Below are positions 2,183 to 43,641 of a stretch of 64,000 nt of DNA, one piece after another. Position numbers and translations under genes: made by a program. The DNA is from Bacteroidota bacterium (GTDB lineage: Bacteria > Bacteroidota > Bacteroidia > B-17B0 > Aurantibacillaceae): positions 1 through 64,000 of the forward strand of contig JAUXZS010000029.1 in the NCBI GenBank assembly GCA_030692515.1, given 5' to 3'. The notes beneath the pieces are model-generated. The model was not told the origin of the DNA. It saw only the letters and a program-made list of their open reading frames with translations, and searched no databases. Within the stretch, counting starts at the first letter, position 1, and each line of letters opens with the position of its first letter.

Positions 2183-2560
2183 ATGGAAAATCTAAACATT
2201 TCACCAACCCCAAAATCTCCTGAGGTAAAATTTAATATTAACGGTGATCTTTTTATTGGAGGTAAATCAATACCCGAGGATACAAATAATTATTATAAAC
2301 CTCTTTTTACATGGTTAGAAGAATTTAAAAAAACATCTCCTGCGGCAATAAATATGACGCTTAAACTTGAATATATGAACACATCAAGCGTGCGTATTAT
2401 GTTAAAGTTTCTTCAAAATCTAGTGGCTTTATCTAAAGAAAACGTACAACTTAAAATAACTTGGGTATATGATTTTGATGATGATGATATTTGCGAACAA
2501 GGTGAAATAATTAAAGAAAGCATTAAATTTCCAATGGAGATGGTTGAAAATAGATTTTAA
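2183..2560 (+). CDS. siaC: SiaC-family regulatory phosphoprotein (DUF1987)
   Basis: This 125-residue protein fits the SiaC/DUF1987 family: the N-terminal PTPKSPEVKF-NINGDLFIGGKSIPED pattern and a YMNTSS motif. In Pseudomonas, SiaC is phosphorylated on Thr68 by the kinase SiaB and dephosphorylated by the PP2C phosphatase SiaA; here Thr67 in YMNTSS aligns with that residue. The gene lies 49 bases upstream of a TPR-SpoIIE phosphatase on the same strand, so substrate and phosphatase are probably co-transcribed. No SiaB kinase is adjacent; the only one in the window lies 40 kb away beside a second siaC. Family assignment is firm; the downstream target is unknown. Confidence 0.85.
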   Translation: MENLNISPTPKSPEVKFNINGDLFIGGKSIPEDTNNYYKPLFTWLEEFKKTSPAAINMTLKLEYMNTSSVRIMLKFLQNLVALSKENVQLKITWVYDFDDDDICEQGEIIKESIKFPMEMVENRF

Positions 2561-2609
2561 GCAAATAGTTACTTGTATTGAGAGAAAAGTAATTTATAAT
2601 ACTATTTAA

Positions 2610-4769
2610 ATGAAATTAATTTTATCCCTATTAATTATAAATTCATTTGTCTTTTCTCAAATCGACCAAAAACAAATTGATTCTCTCACCAAAATAGCAA
2701 ATAGCAAATCCCCCGACAGTGTTCGTATATCTGCTTTATCAGATCTTAATTGGATATTCGCAGTTTCAAATCCAAAAAAATCCAAAGAGTACGCAATACA
2801 AGAAATTCAATTATCTGCCAACGCTTCACCATTACTAAAAGCGCAAGCCTATAATGATTTGGCTATTTCTTTTTACAAATTAACAATTAATGATTCAGCG
2901 CTGTATTATAACAAAAAAGCTTACGATATTCGAAAAGCTGTTGGAAGAAAAGATTTAATGGCCTCATCATTAAGCAAAATAGCAATGATTCATATGGACT
3001 TAGGAAATTATTCGCAGGCGTTAATTGCAAATTTGGAAGCTTTAAATATTTACGAACAAAAAAAAGATGAAGCCCGTCTTGCTTTAATATACAATAACAT
3101 CAGCCAGCTTTACGAAAAATTAAACCGTTTCGATAAAGAGATTTATTATTGTGAGAAATCTTTAAACCTATGCATAAAACTCGGAGACGAATATGGTGAG
3201 GCAAACTGTTTAGCAAATTTAGCAGGCTGCTATATAAAAAAGGGTAACGCAAAAAAATCATTCGCCATCATGGATAGAGTAATTGCTGTCTACTCAAAGT
3301 ATGGTGACTCACTCAGTTTATCAAGCGCCTATAATAATTTAGGTTACATGAATCGTATAACTGGAGATTTTAAATCCGCAAAAGACTATTATTTAAAAGC
3401 CATTGCTATTTGTAAAAATCTAAACAACACGCAAAGCTTACTCCTTTTCCTCCATAATTTAAGTTCAATCTATTTATTAGAAAAAAATTATTTAGCAGCC
3501 GAAAGCACAAGCAAAGAAGTTTTATCAAACACAAGCGCCGATAACATTACTCAACTGCTATTAACCTATCGCTTATTAGCAACAATATATCCTTATTTAA
3601 ATAAACCAGCCGAAGCCGAAAAATATCTAGATAATTTTGTTTCATTAAAAGACTCTGTGTTTTCAAAAGAAAATGCTGCGTCAATGGGGCGTCTACAAAC
3701 ACTTTTTGAAATCGAAAAACAAGATCTCATGATTCAAAATCTTGAAAAAGATAAAGTATTGCAATCTGTTCAAATCAAAAAACGAAACACAACTATTTTG
3801 GCGGTAACAATTGGATTAGGCTTATCTATTCTCTTAATTTTTGCTGTATTTAGAAGTTATCGTCAAAAGCAAAAAGCCAACTCAATAATTACTCTACAAA
3901 AAGAAAAAGTTGAATCTCAAAGAGACGAATTAAAATTTAAAAACGAAATTATTGAGGAAAAAAGCAAAGAAATTACCGATAGTATTAATTACGCGAAGCG
4001 AATTCAAGACGCAATTTTGCCATCTATTAGCGATATCAATAAACATTTTCCAAATAATTTTGTTTACTATCAACCAAAAGATATTATTGCAGGTGATTTT
4101 TACTGGATGCATTCTGATGATAATTTACTTTTTATTGCCGCCGCCGATTCAACTGGCCACGGCGTGCCAGGTGCAATGGTTAGCATTGTCTGTAGTAATG
4201 CTTTGGATAAAGCAGTAAAAGATTTTGGTTTAACAAAGCCTGGAGAAATTTTAGATAAAACAACCGATTTAGTTATTGAATCTTTTGCTAAAAATGGTCA
4301 GATAATAAAAGGAGAAATGGGAGAAGAAATAAAAGATGGAATGGATATTTCTTTACTTTGTATTGATAAACAAAATAAAAAAATATTTTGGAGTGGCGCT
4401 AATAATCAACTTTGGTTTATTACTCCAGAAACAAAAGTTACAGACGAAAATTCAGAATCGATTGAGATTAGCGAAATTAAACCCGATAAACAACCCATCG
4501 GGAAAAACGAATACCGTAAAGCTTTTGTTACGCATGAAATTCAATATTTAAAGGGAACTATTTTTTATTTAATGACAGATGGTTACCCCGACCAATTTGG
4601 CGGAGCAAAGGGGAAAAAATTTAAATACAAACAATTAGCTGAAATTTTAATTGAAAATTACAAACAGCCTCTTGAAAAACAAAAAGAAACTTTGCTAAAT
4701 AAATTTGAGGCATGGAAGGTAGGTCACGAACAAGTTGATGATGTAACTATCATTGGTATTCAGATTTAA
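2610..4769 (+). CDS. TPR sensor - transmembrane - SpoIIE/PP2C serine/threonine phosphatase
   Basis: The order is a signal peptide (MKLILSLLIINSFVFSQ), a periplasmic array of TPR-like helices to about residue 370, one membrane helix (ILAVTIGLGLSILLIFAVF, about 397-415), a cytoplasmic coiled coil, and a SpoIIE/PP2C domain over the last ~210 residues. Metal-site aspartates are visible in AGDFYW, ADSTGHGVPGA, DGMDIS and the final DDVTIIG. The linker before the domain carries EITDSINYAKRIQ, shared with four other phosphatases here. SpoIIE-type phosphatases dephosphorylate partner-switch proteins; the neighbouring SiaC-like protein is the obvious candidate substrate. The periplasmic ligand is unknown. 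Confidence 0.9.
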   Translation: MKLILSLLIINSFVFSQIDQKQIDSLTKIANSKSPDSVRISALSDLNWIFAVSNPKKSKEYAIQEIQLSANASPLLKAQAYNDLAISFYKLTINDSALYYNKKAYDIRKAVGRKDLMASSLSKIAMIHMDLGNYSQALIANLEALNIYEQKKDEARLALIYNNISQLYEKLNRFDKEIYYCEKSLNLCIKLGDEYGEANCLANLAGCYIKKGNAKKSFAIMDRVIAVYSKYGDSLSLSSAYNNLGYMNRITGDFKSAKDYYLKAIAICKNLNNTQSLLLFLHNLSSIYLLEKNYLAAESTSKEVLSNTSADNITQLLLTYRLLATIYPYLNKPAEAEKYLDNFVSLKDSVFSKENAASMGRLQTLFEIEKQDLMIQNLEKDKVLQSVQIKKRNTTILAVTIGLGLSILLIFAVFRSYRQKQKANSIITLQKEKVESQRDELKFKNEIIEEKSKEITDSINYAKRIQDAILPSISDINKHFPNNFVYYQPKDIIAGDFYWMHSDDNLLFIAAADSTGHGVPGAMVSIVCSNALDKAVKDFGLTKPGEILDKTTDLVIESFAKNGQIIKGEMGEEIKDGMDISLLCIDKQNKKIFWSGANNQLWFITPETKVTDENSESIEISEIKPDKQPIGKNEYRKAFVTHEIQYLKGTIFYLMTDGYPDQFGGAKGKKFKYKQLAEILIENYKQPLEKQKETLLNKFEAWKVGHEQVDDVTIIGIQI

Positions 4770-9519: not shown

Positions 9520-11664
9520 TTAAATTTTAATTCCAATTAAGCAAACATCGTCCACCTGCCCTAAATTACCTTTCCAATTTTCAAATACTTCGTTAATACA
9601 ATCTTTCTGCTCATGTAAAGTTAATTGATTGTTTTTAATTAATAATTCGGAAAATTGTTTTTTGTTGAATTTTTTACCGGAAGGTCCGCCAAATTGATCG
9701 GCGAATCCATCCGTAAATAAATAAAATGTAGTGTTTTCAATGTAATCAATTTCGTGAGTTGTAAAAGGTTTAGGATTATCGGTTTTTCCAATTGGCTGCT
9801 TATCTGCCTTTATTACCATTAGTTCATTACCCCCTACCTTATTCGAATTAGAAGAATGAGAAATATACCATAATGGATTGTTAGCCCCGCTCCAGAATAT
9901 TTTTTTGTTTTTATTGTCAATACATAAAAGTGAAATATCCATTCCGTCTTTTACATCACTCGTGCTTTTTTCAAAAGTTTCTAAAACCAACTCTCGTGTT
10001 TTATCAAGTATTTTACCAGTTTCGCTTATATTAAATTCCTTTACTGTTCTATGTAAGGCGTTTGAACAAACTATTGAGACTAAAGCTCCCGGCACACCAT
10101 GTCCGGTTGAGTCGGCTGCAGCAATATAAAACTTGTCGCCAATTTTCTCTGACCAATAAAAATCACCGGCAACCAAATCTTTTGGTTTGTATAAAATAAA
10201 ATTATGTTTAAAATGTTTATTAATAAATTCAAAAGGTGGTAAAATAGCTTCTTGTAATCGTTTAGCGTATGTTATAGAATCAATTATTTCTTTTTGTTTT
10301 TCATCAACCAAATGTTTTTGTTTCTCAACTTCTATTTTTTGTTGTAGAGTAATAAGATTGGCTTTTTGCTTTCCGTTATATGCTCTTATAGCAATAACTA
10401 AAAAAAGAAAAACTAAAACGCCGGCTCCAATGCTAATATTTGTGATTTTTTTTTGTTGCCTTAATTCTTCTTTAGCAACAATATCTTTTTTAAGTTGTTT
10501 TTCTTTTGTTTCAGCTTCTTTTTTATTAAAATCGAAAGTTAATTGTTGCTGAATAATTTTTTCAGAGTTATCTTTATTTCTAACACTATCCATATATTCT
10601 ACATGCAATTTATAATGATAAAAGGAGTTTTTATAATCCCTCTTTAGTGTATCAATACGACTTAATAATGCATAACAATCTGCTAAAATTTTCAAACTTC
10701 TTGTTTTCTTAAGTATTATGAGATTTTCTTTTAATTTTTTTTCTGCGCTACTGATATTATTAAGCTCAATTTCAACCCTCCCAATATCATTTATTGTGCC
10801 TACCATCCCCTCAATATTTTCAGTCTCCTCCTGCATTTTTAATGCCCGATTAAAATAGTCTTTAGCAAGTGTATATTTTTTTTGGATTAAATATATAGAA
10901 CCTAAATGATTGTATGAGGATGAAATTCCTCTCTTATCATTAATTTCCAAGCTTATTTTTAAAGATTTATTAAAAAAATTATAGGCAGTATCAATTTTTC
11001 CTAATTCTAAATACAAATTTCCAATATTGGAAATTGCATTCGCCAATCCAAATTTAGTGTTTGTTTCTTCAAAAAGGTTCACGGCTAATTTGTAATTTTT
11101 CAAAGCCTCATCATATTTACGTTCATTAAAATATACATTCCCAATATTCGCGTAAGAAGCGCCCATTTGAGATTTGTCATTTAACTCCGCCCGCAATTTA
11201 AGACCGAGTAAATAATTTTTTATTGCTTCTGAAGTATTCCCTTGTTTAATGAACACTATCCCTATGTTGTTATAGGCCGCAGCGACAACTTTTTTATCTC
11301 CCGCCTTATTTCCGAAAAAAATTGCTTTATTAAAATACTCTAAAGCATCATGGTGTTTGCTTAAATTAAGATGAGCTGTTCCTAAATTAAAATTAGACAG
11401 TGCTACTCCACCAAGATTATTATTTTTCGTATAAATCACTAAAGCCAATTCCCCATACTTTACTGATTTAGTAGGGTTATTTCTTCTTAATTCAAACGCC
11501 AAATAATTATAACTTCTAGCTATTGTGGTGTCTGGTTTTTTAATTGCTATACTTTTTAAGACGGAATCTTCGATAATAGAAAAATTATTATCGGAATTTT
11601 GGCAATAAAAATTGCAAATCCATCCGAAAATAATAATAATAATATATTTAATTTTTGTTTGCAC
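9520..11664 (-). CDS. TPR sensor - transmembrane - SpoIIE/PP2C phosphatase
   Basis: I place the start at the GTG at 11664-11662, giving 714 residues. It yields a proper signal peptide (MQTKIKYIIIIIFGWICNFY) and a 5-base gap to the upstream stop; the longer TTG frame overlaps the upstream gene and adds a charged leader. A periplasmic TPR array follows (motifs such as YNNIGIVFIKQGNTSEAIKNY), then a membrane helix (GAGVLVFLFLVIAI), a coiled coil with EIIDSITYAKRLQ, and a SpoIIE domain with AGDFYW, ADSTGHGVPGA, DGMDIS, TDGFADQFGG and a final DDVCLIG. It is closest in its catalytic part to the 2610-4769 protein. It is probably co-transcribed with the propeller phosphatase upstream. Confidence 0.9.
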   Translation of the reverse strand: MQTKIKYIIIIIFGWICNFYCQNSDNNFSIIEDSVLKSIAIKKPDTTIARSYNYLAFELRRNNPTKSVKYGELALVIYTKNNNLGGVALSNFNLGTAHLNLSKHHDALEYFNKAIFFGNKAGDKKVVAAAYNNIGIVFIKQGNTSEAIKNYLLGLKLRAELNDKSQMGASYANIGNVYFNERKYDEALKNYKLAVNLFEETNTKFGLANAISNIGNLYLELGKIDTAYNFFNKSLKISLEINDKRGISSSYNHLGSIYLIQKKYTLAKDYFNRALKMQEETENIEGMVGTINDIGRVEIELNNISSAEKKLKENLIILKKTRSLKILADCYALLSRIDTLKRDYKNSFYHYKLHVEYMDSVRNKDNSEKIIQQQLTFDFNKKEAETKEKQLKKDIVAKEELRQQKKITNISIGAGVLVFLFLVIAIRAYNGKQKANLITLQQKIEVEKQKHLVDEKQKEIIDSITYAKRLQEAILPPFEFINKHFKHNFILYKPKDLVAGDFYWSEKIGDKFYIAAADSTGHGVPGALVSIVCSNALHRTVKEFNISETGKILDKTRELVLETFEKSTSDVKDGMDISLLCIDNKNKKIFWSGANNPLWYISHSSNSNKVGGNELMVIKADKQPIGKTDNPKPFTTHEIDYIENTTFYLFTDGFADQFGGPSGKKFNKKQFSELLIKNNQLTLHEQKDCINEVFENWKGNLGQVDDVCLIGIKI

Positions 11665-11669
11665 TAATT

Positions 11670-14600
11670 CTAAAACCTCACACCTATTATACAAACATCA
11701 TCAATTTGCTCGAGATTTCCTTTCCAATTATTAAACGCGTCTTCAATTTTCTGCTTTTGGCCCTCCATACTGTCACCATAACTAGAAATTAAAATATCTT
11801 GAAGTTGTTTATGTTTAAATTTTTTTCCTTTTGATCCACCAAATTGATCTGCAAAACCATCGGTTAAAGTATAAATCACATCGCCTTTAATTAAGTTTAC
11901 AGTATGGTTATTGAATGGAGTAGCATCTTTATGATGTTTCCCAACTGGCATTCTATCTCCCTTAAGATCTATTAGCTCAACACTTTTTTCTGTTTGCCTC
12001 AATATCCATATTGGATTGTTTGCTGATGAGTAGGTTATTTTATTATTTTTAAAATCAAAGGCTATAACACTACAATCCATTCCATCTTTGCCTCCTTCTA
12101 CACTACCGTCTTGAGCCAAAGATTCAATAATTCGCTTACGTGCGTGGTTTAATATCTCTGCAGGACTTTTTAACTTACGCTCATTTATTGCCTCATTTAA
12201 ACAAGAAATATTTAGCATACTCATCATTGCTCCCGGAACACCATGCCCTGTACTATCAGCAGTTACCAAAGCAAAATCACCATTTACCAAATGCGAAGCC
12301 CAATAAAAATCTCCGCTTACAATATCTTTAGGCTTAAAGAATAAAAAATAATTTTTAAGATTGGTGTTTAACAACTCATCACTTGCCAATAACGCACGTT
12401 GAATACGTTGAGCATAATTTATACTATCAACAATTTCTTTTTGTTTTTCCTCAATTAATTCTTTTTGCTCAACAACTTCGGCCGTGCGTTCGGCAACTAT
12501 TACTTCTAATTTCTTTTGATTCACTCTTAATTGAGCAGTACGTATATTGATAAAGCAATAAATTAATGTACTTACCATAATCATATATAAAAAATAGGCT
12601 AGCCATGTTTTCCACCAGGGTGGATTAATTACAAATTTATATTTTAATATATCACTCCATTGTTGAGACAAACCAATTGCTCTTACATTAAAAACATACT
12701 CTCCGTTAGATAAGTTACTATACAAAGCTCTATTATCTTTTGTTAAAGGACTCCAATCCTTATCTATACCTTCCAACATATATTGATAGTGGATTTTGTT
12801 GGGCGCCGACCAGTCAATAGCACTAAACTGAAAGGTAATATGATTTATATGATAAGGTAATTGTAAATTTTTAGGATAATTATAAAATGAAACCAAACTA
12901 TCAAATTTAACATCTTTTAAACTCTTTTTTATTTCATCTCCAACAAACATTGGATTGCCAGATTTTAAAGAATCCTTTAAAGCATAGAAATCAATAAAGG
13001 TTTGCTCAAGTTCAATATTATTTAATTGTATTAAAGGTTTTTCTGTTGAAAGTTTAAATGTATTAAGGTTTAATGTGCTTAAGGCCTTTCCTGTGCCCCA
13101 CCAAATATTATTTTTACTATCGATTAAAGAAGATTTATTGAAAAAATTATTCGCTTTTAATCCGCTTGTAGTAGAATAAACAAGTGCCTCATAAATACTA
13201 TTTTCACTTGAGTTTTTTGAGGTTTCTTGTTTAATTTTAGCAGATGCGCTTATGAAATAATTAAGTCCATTCTCTGTTCCAAGCCACAAACCACCTGCTT
13301 TATCTTCAAGAATTGAATTAACATCATTATTACTAAGCCCCTCATTTTCTGTAAATCGTATAAATTTTAGGTTCCCAGATTCTAAAGAATTTTTTTCTAT
13401 CCCGCATAACCCTTCACCATCCGTACCAAACCAAATAGTACCTTTTGAATCTTGAAAAATTGTATTTATATAATTACTACTTAAACCTTGTTTTTTTGTA
13501 TAATAAGTAAAATAAACGCCATCAAATCTACACGCTCCACCTCCATCAGTTCCGAGCCAAAGAGTGCCTTGATTATCTTTCATCATACACAAAACAGTAT
13601 TATTACATAAACCTTCTGTTTCAGAAAATGTCGTAAAAAATTTACCATCAAAACGAGAAACACCATTACCATCTGAGCCAAACCAAACATTTCCTTGACC
13701 ATCTTCTAATAATGACAAGATATAATCGCTGCACAATCCTTGTTCCTCTGTATAATTTAAAAACGATTTTCCATCATATTTAATAACTCCGCCGCCATCA
13801 GTAGCAAACCACAAATTTTCATGTTTATCTAATAAAATAGCCTTAATATAATTACTACTTAAACCTTTACTTACATTATAATGAGCAAAACTTTTTCCAT
13901 CATAAATCATTATTCCATCTCCATAAGTTCCAAACCAAATTTTCCCTGTTTTATCTTCTAAAATCGCCCTTACAGTGTTATTTCCTAATCCTTCTTTGTT
14001 CGTATAATGCATGAACAATTTTTCATCATAACGGTTAACACCTCCTCCATAAGTTCCAAACCATAAGTTACCTGCATTATCTTCTTGTATTGAAGAAACA
14101 TAATTATTACTTAAACCTTCGTTTTCTGTGTAATAAGTAAATGTTTTACCATCAAATTTATTAGCGCCACCACTATAAGTACCAAACCATAGATTACCAA
14201 TTTTATCTTGAAAAATTGACAATACGCTATTATTACTTAAACCTTGGTATTCGGTATAATAAGAAAACGATTTTCCATCAAACAAATTTACCCCTCCTTC
14301 ATCCGTTCCAAACCACAAATTACCATTCTTGTCTTCGAACATAGATAATACAATATTGTTACTTAAACCTTCGTCCTCTGAAAAGGTAGTTAATGTTTTT
14401 CCGTCGTAACGACTAAGTCCTCCTCCATTTGTTCCAAACCAAATATTTCCATTTTTATCCTCCAAAATTCCTCTTACAGAATTATTGCATAAGCCTTCTC
14501 GTTCTGTAAAATAAGTAAAACTTTTTCCATCATAACTGCAAACACCACCACCATTAGTACCAAACCAAATATTCCCTTTTTTATCTTGAATAATTGACAA

Positions 14601-15329
14601 AACTGTATTATTACTTAAACCTTCTTTTTCAGAAAAACGAATAAATGTTTTTCCATTATAACAACAAGCGCCTCCACCCTCGGTACCAAACCAAATATTT
14701 CCAGCTTTATCTTCTAACATAGATAATACTACGCTATTGCTTAACCCTTCTTTTTCGGTGTAATGAAAAAACGAACGGCCATCATATCTGCTAACTCCTG
14801 CCTTTGTACCAAACCACAAATTGCCATTTTTATCATTTAAAATGCTTCTAACATATGGAGAATTCATTCCCTGATCAACATCAAGATATTGTAAATTATA
14901 AATTGTTGCGTCTTTAAATCTTGGAGTTGCAGCAATAACAGGAACAGGTTGTTTACAAAATATTTCTTTTCCATTTGCAGGAACAACTTTTGGTGTTGAG
15001 GAAGTGTCTTTTCTTAATGTAGTTGTAGGAAGCTCCTTAGGTAAAAAAACAACCTTTGGCTCGCCAACAAGATGAACATTTGTATTGGTAGGCAAAACAA
15101 TTGGAGTTGATACGTTTAATACTTTTGGCAAACCAGCTAAAACAGGTAATGAAACTGCTCTATGTAAACTAACTGGATTATATTTTTGTGTTTTTACGGA
15201 TTCTGCGCCCGTATGTTTTTTATCCCTCGAATGATTATCGTCTACACTATTAGTATTACAGGAAATAAAACTAATAAAAAATAAAAAAAAATATAGAAGC
15301 TTGTTAAAAAGACACATATTGAATGGCAT
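11670..15329 (-). CDS. Two-component-type beta-propeller/Y_Y_Y sensor fused to SpoIIE/PP2C phosphatase
   Basis: After an N-terminal lipoprotein-like signal (FFLFFISFISC), residues ~145-730 hold about 14 propeller repeats of the pattern EDKxGNxWFGTxGGGxxRYDGKxF. This matches the two seven-bladed propellers of Bacteroides hybrid two-component sensors. A Y_Y_Y domain (HITFQFSAIDWSAP...YQYMLEGIDKDW), one membrane helix (YFLYMIMVSTLIYCFI), a coiled coil with EIVDSINYAQRIQ and a SpoIIE domain follow. Metal residues lie in SGDFYW, ADSTGHGVPGA, GGKDGMDCS, TDGFADQFGG and DDVCIIG. The usual histidine kinase output is thus replaced by a phosphatase. The periplasmic ligand is unknown. Confidence 0.92.
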   Translation of the reverse strand: MPFNMCLFNKLLYFFLFFISFISCNTNSVDDNHSRDKKHTGAESVKTQKYNPVSLHRAVSLPVLAGLPKVLNVSTPIVLPTNTNVHLVGEPKVVFLPKELPTTTLRKDTSSTPKVVPANGKEIFCKQPVPVIAATPRFKDATIYNLQYLDVDQGMNSPYVRSILNDKNGNLWFGTKAGVSRYDGRSFFHYTEKEGLSNSVVLSMLEDKAGNIWFGTEGGGACCYNGKTFIRFSEKEGLSNNTVLSIIQDKKGNIWFGTNGGGVCSYDGKSFTYFTEREGLCNNSVRGILEDKNGNIWFGTNGGGLSRYDGKTLTTFSEDEGLSNNIVLSMFEDKNGNLWFGTDEGGVNLFDGKSFSYYTEYQGLSNNSVLSIFQDKIGNLWFGTYSGGANKFDGKTFTYYTENEGLSNNYVSSIQEDNAGNLWFGTYGGGVNRYDEKLFMHYTNKEGLGNNTVRAILEDKTGKIWFGTYGDGIMIYDGKSFAHYNVSKGLSSNYIKAILLDKHENLWFATDGGGVIKYDGKSFLNYTEEQGLCSDYILSLLEDGQGNVWFGSDGNGVSRFDGKFFTTFSETEGLCNNTVLCMMKDNQGTLWLGTDGGGACRFDGVYFTYYTKKQGLSSNYINTIFQDSKGTIWFGTDGEGLCGIEKNSLESGNLKFIRFTENEGLSNNDVNSILEDKAGGLWLGTENGLNYFISASAKIKQETSKNSSENSIYEALVYSTTSGLKANNFFNKSSLIDSKNNIWWGTGKALSTLNLNTFKLSTEKPLIQLNNIELEQTFIDFYALKDSLKSGNPMFVGDEIKKSLKDVKFDSLVSFYNYPKNLQLPYHINHITFQFSAIDWSAPNKIHYQYMLEGIDKDWSPLTKDNRALYSNLSNGEYVFNVRAIGLSQQWSDILKYKFVINPPWWKTWLAYFLYMIMVSTLIYCFINIRTAQLRVNQKKLEVIVAERTAEVVEQKELIEEKQKEIVDSINYAQRIQRALLASDELLNTNLKNYFLFFKPKDIVSGDFYWASHLVNGDFALVTADSTGHGVPGAMMSMLNISCLNEAINERKLKSPAEILNHARKRIIESLAQDGSVEGGKDGMDCSVIAFDFKNNKITYSSANNPIWILRQTEKSVELIDLKGDRMPVGKHHKDATPFNNHTVNLIKGDVIYTLTDGFADQFGGSKGKKFKHKQLQDILISSYGDSMEGQKQKIEDAFNNWKGNLEQIDDVCIIGVRF

Positions 15330-37111: not shown

Positions 37112-39661
37112 TTAGACCCTCACCCCAATTAAGGTCACATCATCCACTTGTTCCAAATTACCAACCCATTCAGCAAACGTATTTTCTAAAATTTCTTGTT
37201 GTTCTTTCATTGATTTTTGACTAACCATCTTTAAGAGTTCTTTCAAATTCTTACTCATATATTTTTTTCCTTTGTCACCACCAAACTGGTCGGGAAAACC
37301 ATCTGTTAGGGTATATATAACATCTCCTTTTTGTAAATCAAATTCCTGTATTGTAAATGACTCAGAGTCTCTATCGTGTTTACCCACAGGCATTTTATCT
37401 GGTTTAATCTCTATCACTTCATTATTTCGTATGATCCAAACAGGATTGTGTGCTGCCGCAATCTCTAATTTGGTTTTATTTTTATTAAAAGATATAAGAG
37501 AACAATCCATACCATCTTTGCCCCCCTCTATACTTCCATCTTTCTTTAAACGTTCAATAATATTTTTTCTAGTGAGATTTAATATTTCGGTTGGATTACT
37601 TGACGTTTCAATAGCTTTTTCTAAACTCGTAATATTCAACAAACTCATAATTGCACCAGGAACCCCATGCCCAGTACTATCAGCGGTTACAAATGCGAAA
37701 TTACCGTTCAGTAAAATTGAGCCCCAATAAAAATCACCACTGACAACATCTTTAGGTTTAAACAAAATAAAATACTCATTCAAGTTTTCATCTAAAAGTT
37801 CTTTTGTTGCTAAAAAACTTTTCTGAATTCTTTCTGCATAATTTATACTATCAGTAATTTCTTTGTGTTTTTCTTGAATTATTTCTTTTTGAAAATGAGT
37901 TTCTTTCTCTTTTAATTCAATTATCGCTTTTTGCCTTTGAGTTACTTTAAAACGGTTAAAAATAAAAAGCGCAAAAACAACAACCAAAAATAAACCTATA
38001 TAAAGTGCATAGCGCTGTGTTTTTTCCTGTTTAAGTTGTGCCGCAACAATTTCTTTCTCTGCCACAACTTTAATGCTGTCAGCGGCAGTTTTTTTCTCGA
38101 AACCAAATTTCATTTCCTGTTCTATCGAGGCCTTAGTATTTTCTATGTTAAAAAGACTGTCTTCATACTCTTTAAAAAGCTTATAGTGTTCTAATGCTTT
38201 TGCAGGACGATTGGTTTTTTCAAATAAATTATAAAAGTACTGATGAGCAAATTTTATTTCGATAAAGGCGCCAATTTTTTTTGCAATGTTCAAAGATTTC
38301 TCTATATATTTTTCGGCTAAGTCGTACTTTTTTAATTCTGTATAAAACGACCCTAAATTTCCGTTGGCTTGAGCTGCCATTTGCGGAATATCAGTTTTCT
38401 CAAAACATTCTATACTTTTTAAATAGTATTCTAATGCTTTGTCGTTAAAGTCTTGTGCCTTATATAACAGTGCAATATTTCCGTAGACACAACCCATACC
38501 ATAGGCATCCTTCAATTCCTCATCTGTTTTTAATGCCTTAAAATAATATTCAAGTGCCTGATTATATTTTAGATTGGCTAGAATTTTATTTTTTTTCTTT
38601 TTAGCAGAATCGCCCACTTGCATATAACATATTCCTAAATTTCCAAGTTGATTTGAAATTCCTCTTTTATCATTTATTTCTTCATATTTTTTTAACGATT
38701 GTAGATAGTAGGATTCAGCTTTATTATTTTGGGATTGAATATTATATAATACTGCAATCTCGCCTAAAATAGCAGCTTGATTTTTTATGTTTTCAGCCTC
38801 CTCCGAAATCTTAAGGGCTTTGAAACTATATTCAAGTGATTTTGAATAGTTACCCTGATTTTTATAAATGGATGCAATATTTACAAGGTGACGAGAAATC
38901 CCATTTTTATTTTCTAATTCTTCATCTATTTTTAGGGCTCTTTCATAAAACACGATAGCTTTTGAGAAAACTCCAAGAAATTTATAGGATAATCCTATGT
39001 TTCCGCAAAGAATTGAAATATTATTTTTACTATTAATTTCCTCACTTAGCTTAAGTCCCTTTAACATATTTTCAAGAGCTTTATCATTTTGTCCCATAGC
39101 TTGAAACAAGCCGCCAATATTACCATAGATATTAATTTGCCCCTTAACATTATTTATTTCTAAATTTATTTTGAGGGCTTTTTCAAAGTACTCCATTGCT
39201 TTGTCTGAATTACCAAGGCTTTTATAATTAACTCCTATACCTGCTAAGCAACTACTTTGTAGTTTTTTAGTAAGAATAATATATTTTTTGTCTTTTGATA
39301 ATTCAATTTCTTTTTCGGCTATCCTTAAGCCTTCATCAAAGAATTTTGAGGCGTTTTCATTATCACGTAAATAAATATAATCGTACCCTATAAACCTCAA
39401 ATTTTCACCTTTTTTTAATTGGCTTTTTCCTTTAACAGCATATTCGATTGCTTTTGTATGAAAAAAAATTGCGCTATCAGGTTTAATACCCTGATAAATA
39501 TTTCCTATTTCCATCCATATGTTAGAAATTGTAGTGTCTTGATTATTTGCTTTTAATTCTTGCCGAAGCGAATCAAGTTTAAATGATATCCGTTCGGGAT
39601 TTTGAGAAAACAAATTAACCCCAATCCAAAGAAAAATAAAAATCCAAAAAAATCTAGCCAT
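37112..39661 (-). CDS. TPR sensor - transmembrane - SpoIIE/PP2C phosphatase
   Basis: A signal peptide (FWIFIFLWIGVNLFSQ) precedes roughly ten TPR repeats (for example GNSDKAMEYFEKALKINLEI), a membrane helix (YALYIGLFLVVVFALFIFNRF, split) and a coiled coil with EITDSINYAERIQ. The SpoIIE domain covers the last ~210 residues with SGDFYW, ADSTGHGVPGA, GGKDGMDCS, TDGFPDQFGGD and DDVTLIGV. The catalytic part resembles the propeller phosphatase at 11670-15329, while the membrane helix resembles that of the neighbouring 39792-42179 protein, so it appears to be a domain mosaic or a paralogue of both. It is transcribed separately, 130 bases after the sia operon. Confidence 0.9.
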   Translation of the reverse strand: MARFFWIFIFLWIGVNLFSQNPERISFKLDSLRQELKANNQDTTISNIWMEIGNIYQGIKPDSAIFFHTKAIEYAVKGKSQLKKGENLRFIGYDYIYLRDNENASKFFDEGLRIAEKEIELSKDKKYIILTKKLQSSCLAGIGVNYKSLGNSDKAMEYFEKALKINLEINNVKGQINIYGNIGGLFQAMGQNDKALENMLKGLKLSEEINSKNNISILCGNIGLSYKFLGVFSKAIVFYERALKIDEELENKNGISRHLVNIASIYKNQGNYSKSLEYSFKALKISEEAENIKNQAAILGEIAVLYNIQSQNNKAESYYLQSLKKYEEINDKRGISNQLGNLGICYMQVGDSAKKKKNKILANLKYNQALEYYFKALKTDEELKDAYGMGCVYGNIALLYKAQDFNDKALEYYLKSIECFEKTDIPQMAAQANGNLGSFYTELKKYDLAEKYIEKSLNIAKKIGAFIEIKFAHQYFYNLFEKTNRPAKALEHYKLFKEYEDSLFNIENTKASIEQEMKFGFEKKTAADSIKVVAEKEIVAAQLKQEKTQRYALYIGLFLVVVFALFIFNRFKVTQRQKAIIELKEKETHFQKEIIQEKHKEITDSINYAERIQKSFLATKELLDENLNEYFILFKPKDVVSGDFYWGSILLNGNFAFVTADSTGHGVPGAIMSLLNITSLEKAIETSSNPTEILNLTRKNIIERLKKDGSIEGGKDGMDCSLISFNKNKTKLEIAAAHNPVWIIRNNEVIEIKPDKMPVGKHDRDSESFTIQEFDLQKGDVIYTLTDGFPDQFGGDKGKKYMSKNLKELLKMVSQKSMKEQQEILENTFAEWVGNLEQVDDVTLIGVRV

Positions 39662-39791: not shown

Positions 39792-42179
39792 TTAAATTTT
39801 TAACCCAACCAATAAAATATCATCTAGCTGAATTACAGATTTTTTCCAATTATTAACAGTTACCTCTAAAAAATCAGCATTTGTACTAATTGCATTAGTG
39901 TCAAATTTAAGTATCGTTTCTTTGAAACGATTGACACCAAATTTTTTGTCGTCAACATTTAATTGATCAAATATTCCATCGGTTGAAAGAACTAAAATAG
40001 AGTTTTCTTTTATTTGAAATGTTTCTGATTTAAATTTCCGATCAGGTTCAACTTCTCCCAATAACGATAAACCTCCTATAGATTTTGAAGTAGCTTTTAA
40101 AATTTCTATTTGTTTATTGTAAACAACAAAACCATTATTGCGAGCACCGGCAAATGTTAACAGTTTTTGTTTATGATCGATTTTTACAAAAGACACATCC
40201 ATTCCGTCCTGAGAATATTCATCACCCTTATCTTGTTTTAAGGCTTTAAAAATTAAACTGTGTAAGTGATTTAAAATCTCGTCAGGTTCGGTTATTTTTT
40301 GTTTAACCACTACCTCATTTAAAATAGATTGAGCAATCATGGTCATAAACGCTCCGGGAACACCATGGCCGGTACAATCCGCCACTGCCAGGTAAGAAAA
40401 ACCATTTTCGCTATGAAACCAGTAAAAATCACCGCTTACAATGTCTTTTGGTTTATAGAACACAAAAATTTCTTCGAAGGAATTAATCATTTCCTCTTGT
40501 GATGGCAACATCGAAGTTTGTATTTTCTTAGCGTAATTAATACTTGCAATTATTTTTCGTTGACTTTCATCAACCACCAATTTTTGTTTTTCGATTAACT
40601 GTTTTTGTTTTTGAGAATTTTTAAATCGGTTGTAAATAAAACCACTAAAAATTAATAATAAAAATAACCCGCTATACAATGCAAATTTTAGAGTTTTTTC
40701 TTGTTTTAATTTAGCTTGACTTTCTGCTAATTTTGCCAAAGTTATTTTTTTTTCACTTGCTGTTCTGATACTATCAGCCAATACTTTTTTGTCGTACTCA
40801 TGTTGTATTTTAGATTTATAACTTGCTTTAAGGTTATCTACATTAATAATACTATCCCGCATAGTGATATATAGTGAGAACATTTCTAGCGTTTTTGCAG
40901 TATTACCTTGTTTCTCGTATATCTCTTTAAGGGTTTGAGCTGATTCTCTTATTCTAATTGGAAAACCAAGTTCCTTTGAGAGCCGAAGACTTTTAGTACC
41001 ATATTCTAAAGCAGGTTTCATTTGTCCCTGGTCAAAATATATTTTAGCAATGTTGTTTAGCGCATCTGTAGCGCTCAATTTATCATCAATACTCTCGCTT
41101 ATTTTTAAACTTTGTAACAAATAATCTAATGCTTCTTTTATTTGCCCTTGCTGTTCATATATAAGTGCAATATTGTATAGTGAAATTGATATCCCATTTT
41201 TATTCCCTGCATTTTGTTTTATTTTCAAACTTCGTTGATAGTATTTTAAAGCCTCATTCAATTGCCCTTGATCTTTATAGATGGTGGCCATGTTGTTTAA
41301 AGACTCGGCGATACCTTTTTTATCATTTATTTTTTCTCTTATCTTTAAGCTTTGTAAAAAATTATTCATGGCTTCTTTTAGCTGCCCCTGATCCTGAAAT
41401 AAACATCCGATGTTGTTTAATGAACTTGCAATTAACTCCTTGTCTCCCATCTTTTCTGCTGTTTTTAAACATTGATTGTAATAGTTTAGAGCCTCTTTTA
41501 TTTGTCCTTGACTATCATATACAATTGCCATGTTATTTAGCGTGCCAGCTATGCCTATATCATCCCCTATGTTTTCTCTTAATTTTAAACTCTTTTGGTA
41601 ATAATCTAAAGCCTCTTTTACTTTACCCGTTTCAAAATAAACTGCTGCTATATTATTTAACATGCTTGCAACGCCTATTTGATCATGAATTTTAATAAAA
41701 ATAGCTTTGCTTTTATTATAATAATGTATCGCTAACTTTCCTTCACCTTTAATGGAATGCATGTAACCGATACAGGTAAACATTTTTCCTGATTTTCTTA
41801 AATATGTGAGCTTTAAACCCGATGGAGAATTTAGGTTTTGAGTTTTATCTAAGGTTAGGATGGCCTCATCATTTATTTTAATGGGATTAACTTCAATATT
41901 TTTTTGAGCAACTAATTGTGCTTTTTCGAAAAGTGAGATGGCTTCATCGGGCTGGTTTGAACTAATAAATTTGGCCCATTCATAAAGTGCGTTGATACGG
42001 GATGTATCATGCTTTGCATTTTGTAAAATTAATCTAAGGGAATCGACACTTTTATTTTTCGGTGTAAGTATGGGTTCGGTTTGAGAATTGGAATTAAAAA
42101 AAACCAAAACGAATATCAAAAAAAAAGACAATCGACAAAAAATGTTCAATAAAAAGGTAAACATCAGATCTTTGAACAA
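39792..42179 (-). CDS. TPR sensor - transmembrane - SpoIIE/PP2C phosphatase, SiaA-like partner of the sia operon
   Basis: A hydrophobic leader (LLNIFCRLSFFLIFVLVFF) is followed by about eight very regular TPR repeats (IKEALDYYQKSLKLRE type), a membrane helix (FALYSGLFLLLIFSGFIY), a coiled coil with KIIASINYAKKIQ and a SpoIIE domain. Metal aspartates are in SGDFYW, ADCTGHGVPGA, QDGMDVS, STDGIFDQLN and DDILLVG. It starts one base after siaC, and siaC starts three bases after the kinase gene. By position it is the phosphatase (SiaA role) for this SiaC, although its sensor part is TPR-based rather than the HAMP type of Pseudomonas SiaA. The start could also be the ATG at 42164. Confidence 0.9.
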   Translation of the reverse strand: MFKDLMFTFLLNIFCRLSFFLIFVLVFFNSNSQTEPILTPKNKSVDSLRLILQNAKHDTSRINALYEWAKFISSNQPDEAISLFEKAQLVAQKNIEVNPIKINDEAILTLDKTQNLNSPSGLKLTYLRKSGKMFTCIGYMHSIKGEGKLAIHYYNKSKAIFIKIHDQIGVASMLNNIAAVYFETGKVKEALDYYQKSLKLRENIGDDIGIAGTLNNMAIVYDSQGQIKEALNYYNQCLKTAEKMGDKELIASSLNNIGCLFQDQGQLKEAMNNFLQSLKIREKINDKKGIAESLNNMATIYKDQGQLNEALKYYQRSLKIKQNAGNKNGISISLYNIALIYEQQGQIKEALDYLLQSLKISESIDDKLSATDALNNIAKIYFDQGQMKPALEYGTKSLRLSKELGFPIRIRESAQTLKEIYEKQGNTAKTLEMFSLYITMRDSIINVDNLKASYKSKIQHEYDKKVLADSIRTASEKKITLAKLAESQAKLKQEKTLKFALYSGLFLLLIFSGFIYNRFKNSQKQKQLIEKQKLVVDESQRKIIASINYAKKIQTSMLPSQEEMINSFEEIFVFYKPKDIVSGDFYWFHSENGFSYLAVADCTGHGVPGAFMTMIAQSILNEVVVKQKITEPDEILNHLHSLIFKALKQDKGDEYSQDGMDVSFVKIDHKQKLLTFAGARNNGFVVYNKQIEILKATSKSIGGLSLLGEVEPDRKFKSETFQIKENSILVLSTDGIFDQLNVDDKKFGVNRFKETILKFDTNAISTNADFLEVTVNNWKKSVIQLDDILLVGLKI

Positions 42180-42180
42180 A

Positions 42181-42555
42181 TTAAATATAACTAATTGAAA
42201 AATCTGCTCCTAATAACTCTTTAAACTCTTCACCTTTTTCCAACATTAATTCATCATCTTTACTGCATTTCCAATTTATTTCAAAAGCTTTGTCTTTTAA
42301 GGTAACGGATTTTAAAAGCATTATAGTTTTTACAATTATTTTAGACGTTGCGGTATTAAAATACACCCAGTTAAATTCTAAATTTGTTTTTTCCTTAGGT
42401 TGTTCTATATATGATTCAATGTATTTTAGCGTCTCGCCATAAAAGTCATTTACATTTTCGGGAAAAGACTTTCCTGAAAATGAGAAGTTTCCATTTTGCG
42501 CATCTAATACTATTTCTGGAGTTTCGTTGGTTTGTTTAATAATTATCGTTTCCAT
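42181..42555 (-). CDS. siaC: SiaC-family regulatory phosphoprotein (DUF1987)
   Basis: The 124-residue protein has the SiaC pattern: TPEIVLDAQNGNFSFSGKS, FPENVNDFY and VYFNTATSK. Thr68 in YFNTATSK corresponds to the phosphorylated Thr68 of Pseudomonas SiaC. It is encoded between the kinase and the phosphatase with gaps of only 3 and 1 bases, a compact three-gene switch. It is only moderately similar to the other SiaC at 2183-2560, so the two may serve different targets. No diguanylate cyclase (SiaD) is present nearby. Confidence 0.87.
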   Translation of the reverse strand: METIIIKQTNETPEIVLDAQNGNFSFSGKSFPENVNDFYGETLKYIESYIEQPKEKTNLEFNWVYFNTATSKIIVKTIMLLKSVTLKDKAFEINWKCSKDDELMLEKGEEFKELLGADFSISYI

Positions 42556-42558
42556 GTT

Positions 42559-43641
42559 TTATATTTTAATTTTAATTGAAAAAAACTTTTCTTTCTCTGG
42601 TGTTGGCGTTATGGAATATTCAAAATTTTTTTCGCAATTTTTAGCAATCTCAAGTAATCCTAATCCGCAATTACCATCGCTAGTTATTACATCATCCAAT
42701 AATCTTTTTTTGTAAAGGGTACTAATTTCATTCAAAGGCAACTCTTTAATGAGACTAAGACTGCTTTCAAGTTGCTTGCAATCATCTTCACCTATATAAT
42801 TACCACCTTCAATTGTAAAAAAGTTATCATCTTTACTAATAGAAAAAATGCCTTCTTTTTGTCCATTAATTAATTTACCGTGTTTAGATATATTTTGTAA
42901 AAATTCTATTAAGGACACAGTAAATTTTTTCTCTTTACTATTTGGACTTTTTTCATCTGAAAAGTTATTCTGTAGCATATCAATTACAGAGATTATAATA
43001 TCTTTGGATACATCGCCTTTGTATAAAATCAAAGTCTTTTTATCTAGCAACAATTTGTAAAAATCGATGTACTCATTAACATCTATTTTTTCAACACTTT
43101 CTTTTTTCTGAATAATTTCAAGAAATAAAAAAAATTGTGACTTTGTTTCATTTAAATTTCGAAAGGAATATTTTAGAGGCAAACCTGATTTGCGAGCCAT
43201 TTCAATAAGGCCTAGTCCGGCACCTCCTTTGTCAGAAAATTCTCCACCAGAAAGCACTTCGTTATAAAGTTTTTTTAATTCATCGCTATTTAATGAATTT
43301 ACCTGTAACATTTTTTGCTCTAAAGATTCGACATAATTATTACCAATAAGATTGCAAGATGATAAAACAACGCGGTCTTCTAAAATATTAATCTGAAAAA
43401 AGTCTGAGTGACCAGGCAAGGTTGTTTGGCTACCTTCTTTAACGCCGCCATGTCTAACAATATTTTGAAAACACTCAGCAATTAGAAATGAAACTTTATT
43501 TTTTAATTTACCTAACTCAGTTTTATTTTCTAAATAAAATTCGCTTATTCCGATAAGTTTATCGGTTATTTCGTCGCTAAAGGCGCCCAAATAAGACAAA
43601 CAAATTTTATCATTTTTTAATTTTTCATTAAGTTGCTCCAT
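42559..43641 (-). CDS. siaB: Tandem SiaB-type protein kinase (two GHKL domains)
   Basis: The protein is 360 residues, about twice a normal SiaB (~180). It contains the same module twice. Module 1 (about 10-180) has the N-box AECFQNIVRHG (E56, N60) and G-box KGGAGLGL (138-145). Module 2 (about 200-360) has IEFLQNISKHG (E246, N250) and GNCGLGL (323-329). Both keep the residues expected for ATP/Mg binding. SiaB phosphorylates SiaC on threonine, and the siaC gene follows three bases later. The duplication looks like an internal fusion; whether both heads are active is unknown. Confidence 0.85.
   Translation of the reverse strand: MEQLNEKLKNDKICLSYLGAFSDEITDKLIGISEFYLENKTELGKLKNKVSFLIAECFQNIVRHGGVKEGSQTTLPGHSDFFQINILEDRVVLSSCNLIGNNYVESLEQKMLQVNSLNSDELKKLYNEVLSGGEFSDKGGAGLGLIEMARKSGLPLKYSFRNLNETKSQFFLFLEIIQKKESVEKIDVNEYIDFYKLLLDKKTLILYKGDVSKDIIISVIDMLQNNFSDEKSPNSKEKKFTVSLIEFLQNISKHGKLINGQKEGIFSISKDDNFFTIEGGNYIGEDDCKQLESSLSLIKELPLNEISTLYKKRLLDDVITSDGNCGLGLLEIAKNCEKNFEYSITPTPEKEKFFSIKIKI

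What the first reader, a model, noticed from the sequence alone, without database searches (positions are those of the whole stretch)
42559..43641. Double-headed SiaB kinase
One 360-residue protein contains two complete GHKL modules, each with an N-box (ECFQNIVRHG, EFLQNISKHG) and a G-box (GAGLGL, NCGLGL). Pseudomonas SiaB is a single module. The duplication, next to siaC and a phosphatase, suggests an obligate intramolecular dimer, one catalytic and one regulatory head, or kinases for two different SiaC proteins. This genome has at least two.
Basis: partly seen in the sequence, partly recalled or inferred. Interest (0 to 1): 0.68.

Follow-up and report, generated by a model that had tools for sequence, protein, structure and literature searches.

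The report
Two-headed SiaB-type protein kinase
A bacterial kinase that in Pseudomonas works as a pair of identical molecules is here made as one chain with two unequal heads, a design that turns out to be shared by many Bacteroidota and is probably a built-in, lopsided dimer.

Summary
The ORF lies on the minus strand (42559-43641, 360 aa) and carries two complete SiaB-family (DUF6272) modules; each half passes the family cut-offs alone. AlphaFold2 gives two GHKL folds in a confident mutual arrangement (pLDDT 86.8, pTM 0.86); the best solved match is P. aeruginosa SiaB, 6kko. It is no curiosity of this genome: I collected 105 distinct tandem proteins, nearly all from Bacteroidota. N and C heads form separate lineages, so the fusion is old. 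A second tandem (L065) is a fusion of two neighbouring single-module genes that stay separate in relatives. Since Pseudomonas SiaB acts as a dimer, 2:2 with SiaC (PMC7647112, PMC7278518), I read the tandem as a single-chain SiaB heterodimer acting on the SiaC encoded next door. Both heads keep the catalytic Glu and Asn in 105 of 105; the N-head lid is nearly invariant while the C-head lid is eroded, which points to unequal heads. Two kinases for two SiaCs is poorly supported. I found no paper on tandem SiaB.

The parts
42559..43641 (-). tandem SiaB-family (DUF6272) kinase, 360 aa
   Evidence: two folds in AF2 model
43087..43641 (-). N head (residues 1-185)
   Evidence: DUF6272 101.2 bits, SiaB_fam_kinase 111.9 bits on its own
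42562..43086 (-). C head (residues 186-360)
   Evidence: DUF6272 82.8 bits, SiaB_fam_kinase 109.2 bits on its own; 6kko_A Z 15.0, 166 residues
43462..43476 (-). N-head N-box E56-N60
   Evidence: E and N in 105 of 105 N heads
42892..42906 (-). C-head N-box E246-N250
   Evidence: E and N in 105 of 105 C heads
43207..43227 (-). N-head G2 box / lid GGAGLGL (residues 139-145)
   Evidence: canonical; G142 and G144 in 105 of 105 N heads
42655..42675 (-). C-head G2 box GNCGLGL (residues 323-329), changed lid
   Evidence: in C heads the K, G, G lid positions are kept in 28, 30 and 61 of 105
42181..42555 (-). SiaC-family phosphoprotein, 124 aa, likely substrate; 3 nt after the kinase stop
   Evidence: PF09345 107.1 bits
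42352..42354 (-). codon of SiaC Thr68, equivalent of the P. aeruginosa T68 phosphosite
   Evidence: FNTATSK placed against the published LLYLNTSSIK; residue 430 of the read-through chain = SiaC T68; Ser or Thr in 131 of 131 distinct SiaCs
39792..42179 (-). TPR + SpoIIE/PP2C phosphatase, likely SiaA-like opponent (ORF start as listed, TTG, may be too early)
37112..39661 (-). second TPR + SpoIIE/PP2C phosphatase in the same row

Best explanation
The protein is a single-chain, hetero-headed version of the SiaB kinase dimer. Its two GHKL modules pack on each other as two SiaB subunits would; the chain binds the SiaC encoded 3 nt downstream and phosphorylates it on Thr68, and the TPR-PP2C phosphatase(s) encoded next remove the phosphate, giving a partner switch. 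The N head, with the canonical ATP lid, is the main kinase; the C head, with an eroded lid but intact Glu/Asn, completes the dimer and probably helps to recognise SiaC or to sense nucleotide. Shown here: two complete modules, two folds, old fusion, gene row with SiaC and PP2C, lid asymmetry across the family. Inferred: dimer-like packing, kinase activity, substrate, division of labour. The output of SiaC here is unknown and is not a SiaD-type diguanylate cyclase, because no GGDEF domain was found in the genome.
For: Both halves pass the family cut-offs alone. AF2 pTM 0.86 for the whole chain, which two halves of unknown mutual placement would not be expected to reach. P. aeruginosa SiaB is a dimer and forms a 2:2 complex with SiaC (PMC7647112 passages; PMC7278518 whole text). 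A second tandem, L065 (PP2C - SiaB-SiaB - SiaC), has an N half that groups with the upstream genes and a C half that groups with the downstream genes of the unfused pairs of L070-L073 (100/99 and 100/98 support), three of which (L070, L071, L073) have the same PP2C - SiaB - SiaB - SiaC order. N heads form one lineage (25 of 27, 98/89; 104 of 105 plus one single). Lid complete in the N head only in 89 of 105, C only 1, both 12, neither 3; a G2-box glycine is lost in 11 of 105 C heads (7 changes on a tree) and 0 of 105 N heads. SiaC directly downstream in 83 of 105; a Chlorobiota MAG fuses tandem and SiaC in one ORF (L163). SiaC distances follow C-head distances more than N-head ones (partial r 0.44 against 0.21 over 83 pairs). 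Read-through model of kinase + SiaC: pLDDT 91.8, pTM 0.86. No GGDEF in the genome.
Against: No coordinates were available, so a SiaB-like dimer interface was not checked. C-head Glu and Asn are kept in 105 of 105, which argues against a dead head; P. aeruginosa SiaB itself lacks the K-G-G lid, and only 16 of 29 single modules pass the same strict lid rule, so lid loss alone does not show inactivity. The window's own C head keeps both G2 glycines and has Lys for Arg. In L065 both heads look competent. The tandem could dimerise further. The partial correlation is modest and open to saturation.
Confidence: 0.6

Rival explanations
1. Both heads are active, near-equivalent kinases; the fusion only secures 1:1 dosage of a SiaB dimer that phosphorylates two SiaC molecules.
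For: Catalytic Glu and Asn in both heads of 105 of 105; both lids complete in 12 of 105; in L065 both lids look competent; Pseudomonas complex is 2:2.
Against: Lid complete in the N head only in 89 of 105; a G2 glycine lost in 11 C heads and 0 N heads; C heads less conserved than N heads in 95% of 5460 protein pairs.
Confidence: 0.25
2. Each head serves a different SiaC, so the tandem couples two SiaC pathways.
For: 8 SiaC proteins against 5 SiaB proteins in the genome; 5 SiaCs have no SiaB gene in the stretch fetched around them, so they need a distant kinase if they are phosphorylated.
Against: SiaC directly downstream in 83 of 105 tandems; no conserved two-SiaC row among tandems (only L145 shows two on the same strand); the other tandem of this genome (C41) has its own SiaC; L163 fuses one SiaC to one tandem.
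Confidence: 0.08
3. The C head is a true pseudokinase that binds SiaC without nucleotide and acts only as a scaffold.
For: Lid deleted or scrambled in some C heads (L128, L129).
Against: E and N kept in all 105 C heads, even in those two; the window's C head keeps the G2 glycines.
Confidence: 0.12

Closest known systems
SiaB of Pseudomonas aeruginosa (PA0171; PDB 6kko), GHKL kinase of SiaC Thr68
   Same: Fold (6kko_A: TM by target 0.86; Z 15.0 to the C head), N-box Glu/Asn, SiaC gene next door, PP2C opponent, conserved Thr68.
   Different: Pseudomonas SiaB is one module acting as a dimer; here two diverged modules in one chain, about 25 and 24% identical to it. No GGDEF partner found in this genome.
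SpoIIAB / RsbW anti-sigma kinases
   Same: Each head matches their fold (e.g. 6m37_A Z 10.5 to the N head, 1tid_A Z 9.5 to the C head); partner-switch logic.
   Different: Single modules with STAS-type substrates and sigma factors as clients (recalled); here SiaC substrate, tandem heads, no sigma factor identified. Dimer asymmetry of SpoIIAB is recalled, not tested.
Rv1364c-type fusions (RsbU-RsbW; PDB 3ke6)
   Same: Partner-switch modules fused in one chain (listed).
   Different: Phosphatase and kinase fused, not two kinases.

Membership tests
SiaB family protein kinase (NCBIfam NF038262 / Pfam DUF6272) | profile score above curated cut-off | tested here: met
   each half alone: 111.9 and 109.2 against 85; 101.2 and 82.8 against 26.6
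SiaB family protein kinase (NCBIfam NF038262 / Pfam DUF6272) | GHKL fold like 6kko | tested here: met
   6kko best match; the N head also matches RsbW/SpoIIAB
SiaB family protein kinase (NCBIfam NF038262 / Pfam DUF6272) | N-box Glu and Asn | tested here: met
   E56/N60 and E246/N250; 105 of 105 in each head
SiaB family protein kinase (NCBIfam NF038262 / Pfam DUF6272) | phosphorylates SiaC on Thr68 | not testable with these tools
   SiaC with Thr68 is encoded 3 nt downstream
P. aeruginosa-type SiaB equivalog (NCBIfam NF038264) | score above the equivalog cut-off of 225 bits | tested here: not met
   whole protein 91.6; halves 45.7 and 50.6
P. aeruginosa-type SiaB equivalog (NCBIfam NF038264) | single module | tested here: not met
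   two modules
SiaABCD biofilm pathway | GGDEF diguanylate cyclase SiaD as output | tested here: not met
   no GGDEF match in the genome; the same search finds it in 8 of 14 control genomes
SiaB dimer | SiaB-type dimer interface between the heads | tested here: inconclusive
   pTM 0.86 gives a confident arrangement, but no coordinates to compare with 6kko

The most novel reading that the evidence does not exclude
A conserved, obligately asymmetric SiaC kinase: an N head that does the chemistry and a C head that has shed its ATP lid but keeps the catalytic Glu/Asn because it gates the chain by sensing nucleotide or docking SiaC, serving a SiaC network without GGDEF cyclases, with 8 SiaCs and 45 PP2C-type domains in one genome.
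Probability: 0.35. Interest if true: 0.6.

Novelty: new variant of a known kind. Interest (0 to 1): 0.42.

Why it matters
It gives a natural single-chain form of a GHKL kinase dimer in which each active site can be mutated on its own, so the question whether the two active sites of such a dimer are equal becomes directly testable. It also shows that SiaB-SiaC-PP2C switching is a large system in a Bacteroidota genome without GGDEF cyclases, where its output is unknown.

Tried and rejected
Artefact (assembly or ORF fusion): rejected, 105 distinct tandem proteins from many assemblies. Recent duplication: rejected, halves 24% identical and N and C heads separate on the trees. Plus-strand reading: rejected, full of stops. 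A rare feature of this genome: rejected; at least 23 of 60 relatives (17 of the 37 genomes of the same genus, own included, and 6 of 23 of other families) carry one (the match list was cut, so a lower bound). It is patchy, though: in an even draw of 395 genomes of the phylum only 2 gave a tandem ORF (at most 5 candidates a genome were scored). The 80 loci are the best 80 of 402 matches to a tandem query, so 80 of 80 is not a frequency. One search dropped 5 duplicate proteins of 110. One search counts 93 of 116 with SiaC directly downstream, but these rows hold repeats of the same loci; 83 of 105 is the distinct count. Some tandems counted as lacking SiaC end near a contig end (e.g. L105). Tree caveats: one search's bootstrap had not settled; the window's C half is a long branch without firm place there; one search is a FastTree tree. 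The single modules used for comparison (28 plus P. aeruginosa SiaB) were a selection of those fetched, not a survey.

The read-through model cannot say which head SiaC touches: no coordinates, and an artificial two-residue linker. Literature: (PMC open-licence library only) gave no tandem SiaB paper. Of PMC7647112 and PMC8457831 I saw passages, of PMC7278518 the whole text; all other papers only as search listings. The Chen et al. 2020 EMBO J paper was not held. Recalled, from no call: the role of the N-box Asn in Mg-ATP binding, the name 'ATP lid', SpoIIAB asymmetry. Only the catalytic Glu61 is from a paper, there as a prediction.

Full report
Observation. The ORF at 42559-43641 lies on the minus strand and encodes 360 residues. 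Pfam DUF6272 and NCBIfam SiaB_fam_kinase each match it twice, and each half passes both cut-offs when scanned alone. The halves align over almost their whole length at 24% identity.

Surroundings. Reading along the minus strand the order is tandem kinase, SiaC (3 nt after the kinase stop), TPR-PP2C, second TPR-PP2C. The SiaC has a Thr at position 68, as in P. aeruginosa; Ser or Thr stands there in 131 of 131 distinct SiaCs compared. The genome holds 7 DUF6272 modules in 5 proteins, two of them tandem, 8 SiaCs, 45 SpoIIE/PP2C domains and no GGDEF (the control found it in 8 of 14 genomes). So the Pseudomonas output, activation of the GGDEF cyclase SiaD, is unlikely to be what happens here.

Structure. 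AlphaFold2 with 78 tandem proteins gave mean pLDDT 86.8 and pTM 0.86; the least certain parts are residues 68-71 and 136-139, the latter in the N-head lid. The closest solved structure is SiaB of the SiaB-SiaC complex, 6kko (Foldseek E 4.0e-09; Z 15.0 over 166 residues, aligned to the C head); the N head is matched by RsbW and SpoIIAB among others (Z 10.5 and 10.1). A pTM that high means that the mutual placement of the heads is predicted with confidence, although no coordinates were on hand to compare it with the SiaB dimer. A read-through chain of kinase plus SiaC gave pLDDT 91.8 and pTM 0.86; the linker is artificial and the docking site cannot be read from the output.

Distribution. Of 60 relatives, 50 have DUF6272 and at least 23 have a tandem ORF (27 tandem ORFs with the window's). 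A search of GTDB species genomes with a tandem alignment kept 80 loci, the best of 402, all with a tandem ORF, 83 ORFs in total; titles name Bacteroidales, Flavobacteriales, Cesiribacter, Nafulsella, a Sphingobacteriaceae MAG and one Chlorobiota MAG. An even draw of 395 genomes of the phylum gave tandem ORFs in 2, so the design is widespread but patchy. Pooled and freed of duplicates there are 105 distinct tandem proteins.

History. On a tree of 83 modules, 25 of 27 N heads form one group (98/89) and 18 C heads another (99/98); within this 18-protein subfamily the two main subgroups are the same in both heads. With 239 modules, 104 of 105 N heads fall in one supported set with one single module. 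The fusion is therefore old and the heads have diverged together. L065 is a second case of separate origin: its N half groups with the upstream and its C half with the downstream genes of unfused neighbours in L070-L073, and L070, L071 and L073 show the same PP2C - SiaB - SiaB - SiaC order. Two genes that are repeatedly neighbours and once fused are likely to work as a heterodimer.

Asymmetry. In 105 tandems the catalytic Glu and Asn are kept in both heads, without exception. The lid is not: Lys138, Gly139, Gly140 and Arg150 are kept in 100, 103, 105 and 103 N heads, their counterparts in 28, 30, 61 and 56 C heads. A strict lid rule is met by the N head only in 89 of 105, the C head only in 1, both in 12, neither in 3. 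A G2-box glycine is missing in 11 C heads, 7 changes on a tree, and in no N head. C heads are less alike than N heads in 95% of 5460 protein pairs. Against a simple reading: P. aeruginosa SiaB lacks the K-G-G lid and is an active kinase in print; only 16 of 29 single modules meet the strict rule; the window's C head keeps both glycines and has Lys for Arg. I therefore claim unequal heads with confidence, but not a dead C head.

Substrate. SiaC lies directly downstream in 83 of 105 distinct tandems, and in L163 it is fused to the tandem (one MAG, a stop codon lost by error is not excluded). Over the 83 pairs SiaC divergence follows C-head divergence more than N-head divergence (partial r 0.44 and 0.21; in 99% of 300 subsamples). 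That is a weak hint that the C head takes part in recognising SiaC.

Mechanism. P. aeruginosa SiaB phosphorylates SiaC on Thr68, binds it 2:2 and lets go after phosphorylation (PMC7647112, passages); residues for SiaB dimer formation were identified (PMC7278518). The tandem most simply is that dimer in one chain, with the N head as main kinase. Steps shown: two modules, two folds, family-wide asymmetry, gene row. Steps inferred: dimer packing, catalysis, substrate, division of labour.

Verdict. Real, correctly read as two heads, not unique, not described in the papers searched; a new variant of the SiaB kind.

Noticed in passing
whole genome G000; window 2610-4769, 9520-11694, 11670-15329, 37112-39661, 39792-42179: 45 SpoIIE/PP2C domains in a 4.3-Mb genome, five of them in this window, several with TPR repeats; 8 SiaCs and no GGDEF. 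A large phosphatase-heavy switch network of unknown output.
   Followed up: partly
window 2183-4769: A SiaC gene directly followed by a TPR-PP2C gene; the only SiaB gene of the window lies about 38 kb away, so its kinase is not obvious.
   Followed up: no
L163 4956-6506: Chlorobiota MAG: tandem SiaB and SiaC in one 516-aa ORF.
   Followed up: partly
L074 10525-11649, L075 2640-3773: 374- and 377-aa ORFs with a SiaC domain at the C end and an unidentified N part, beside an ordinary SiaC and SiaB.
   Followed up: no
L064 1920-4502, L105 3585-6086, L122 3437-5967: Two tandem SiaB genes in a row (four heads) in three loci.
   Followed up: no
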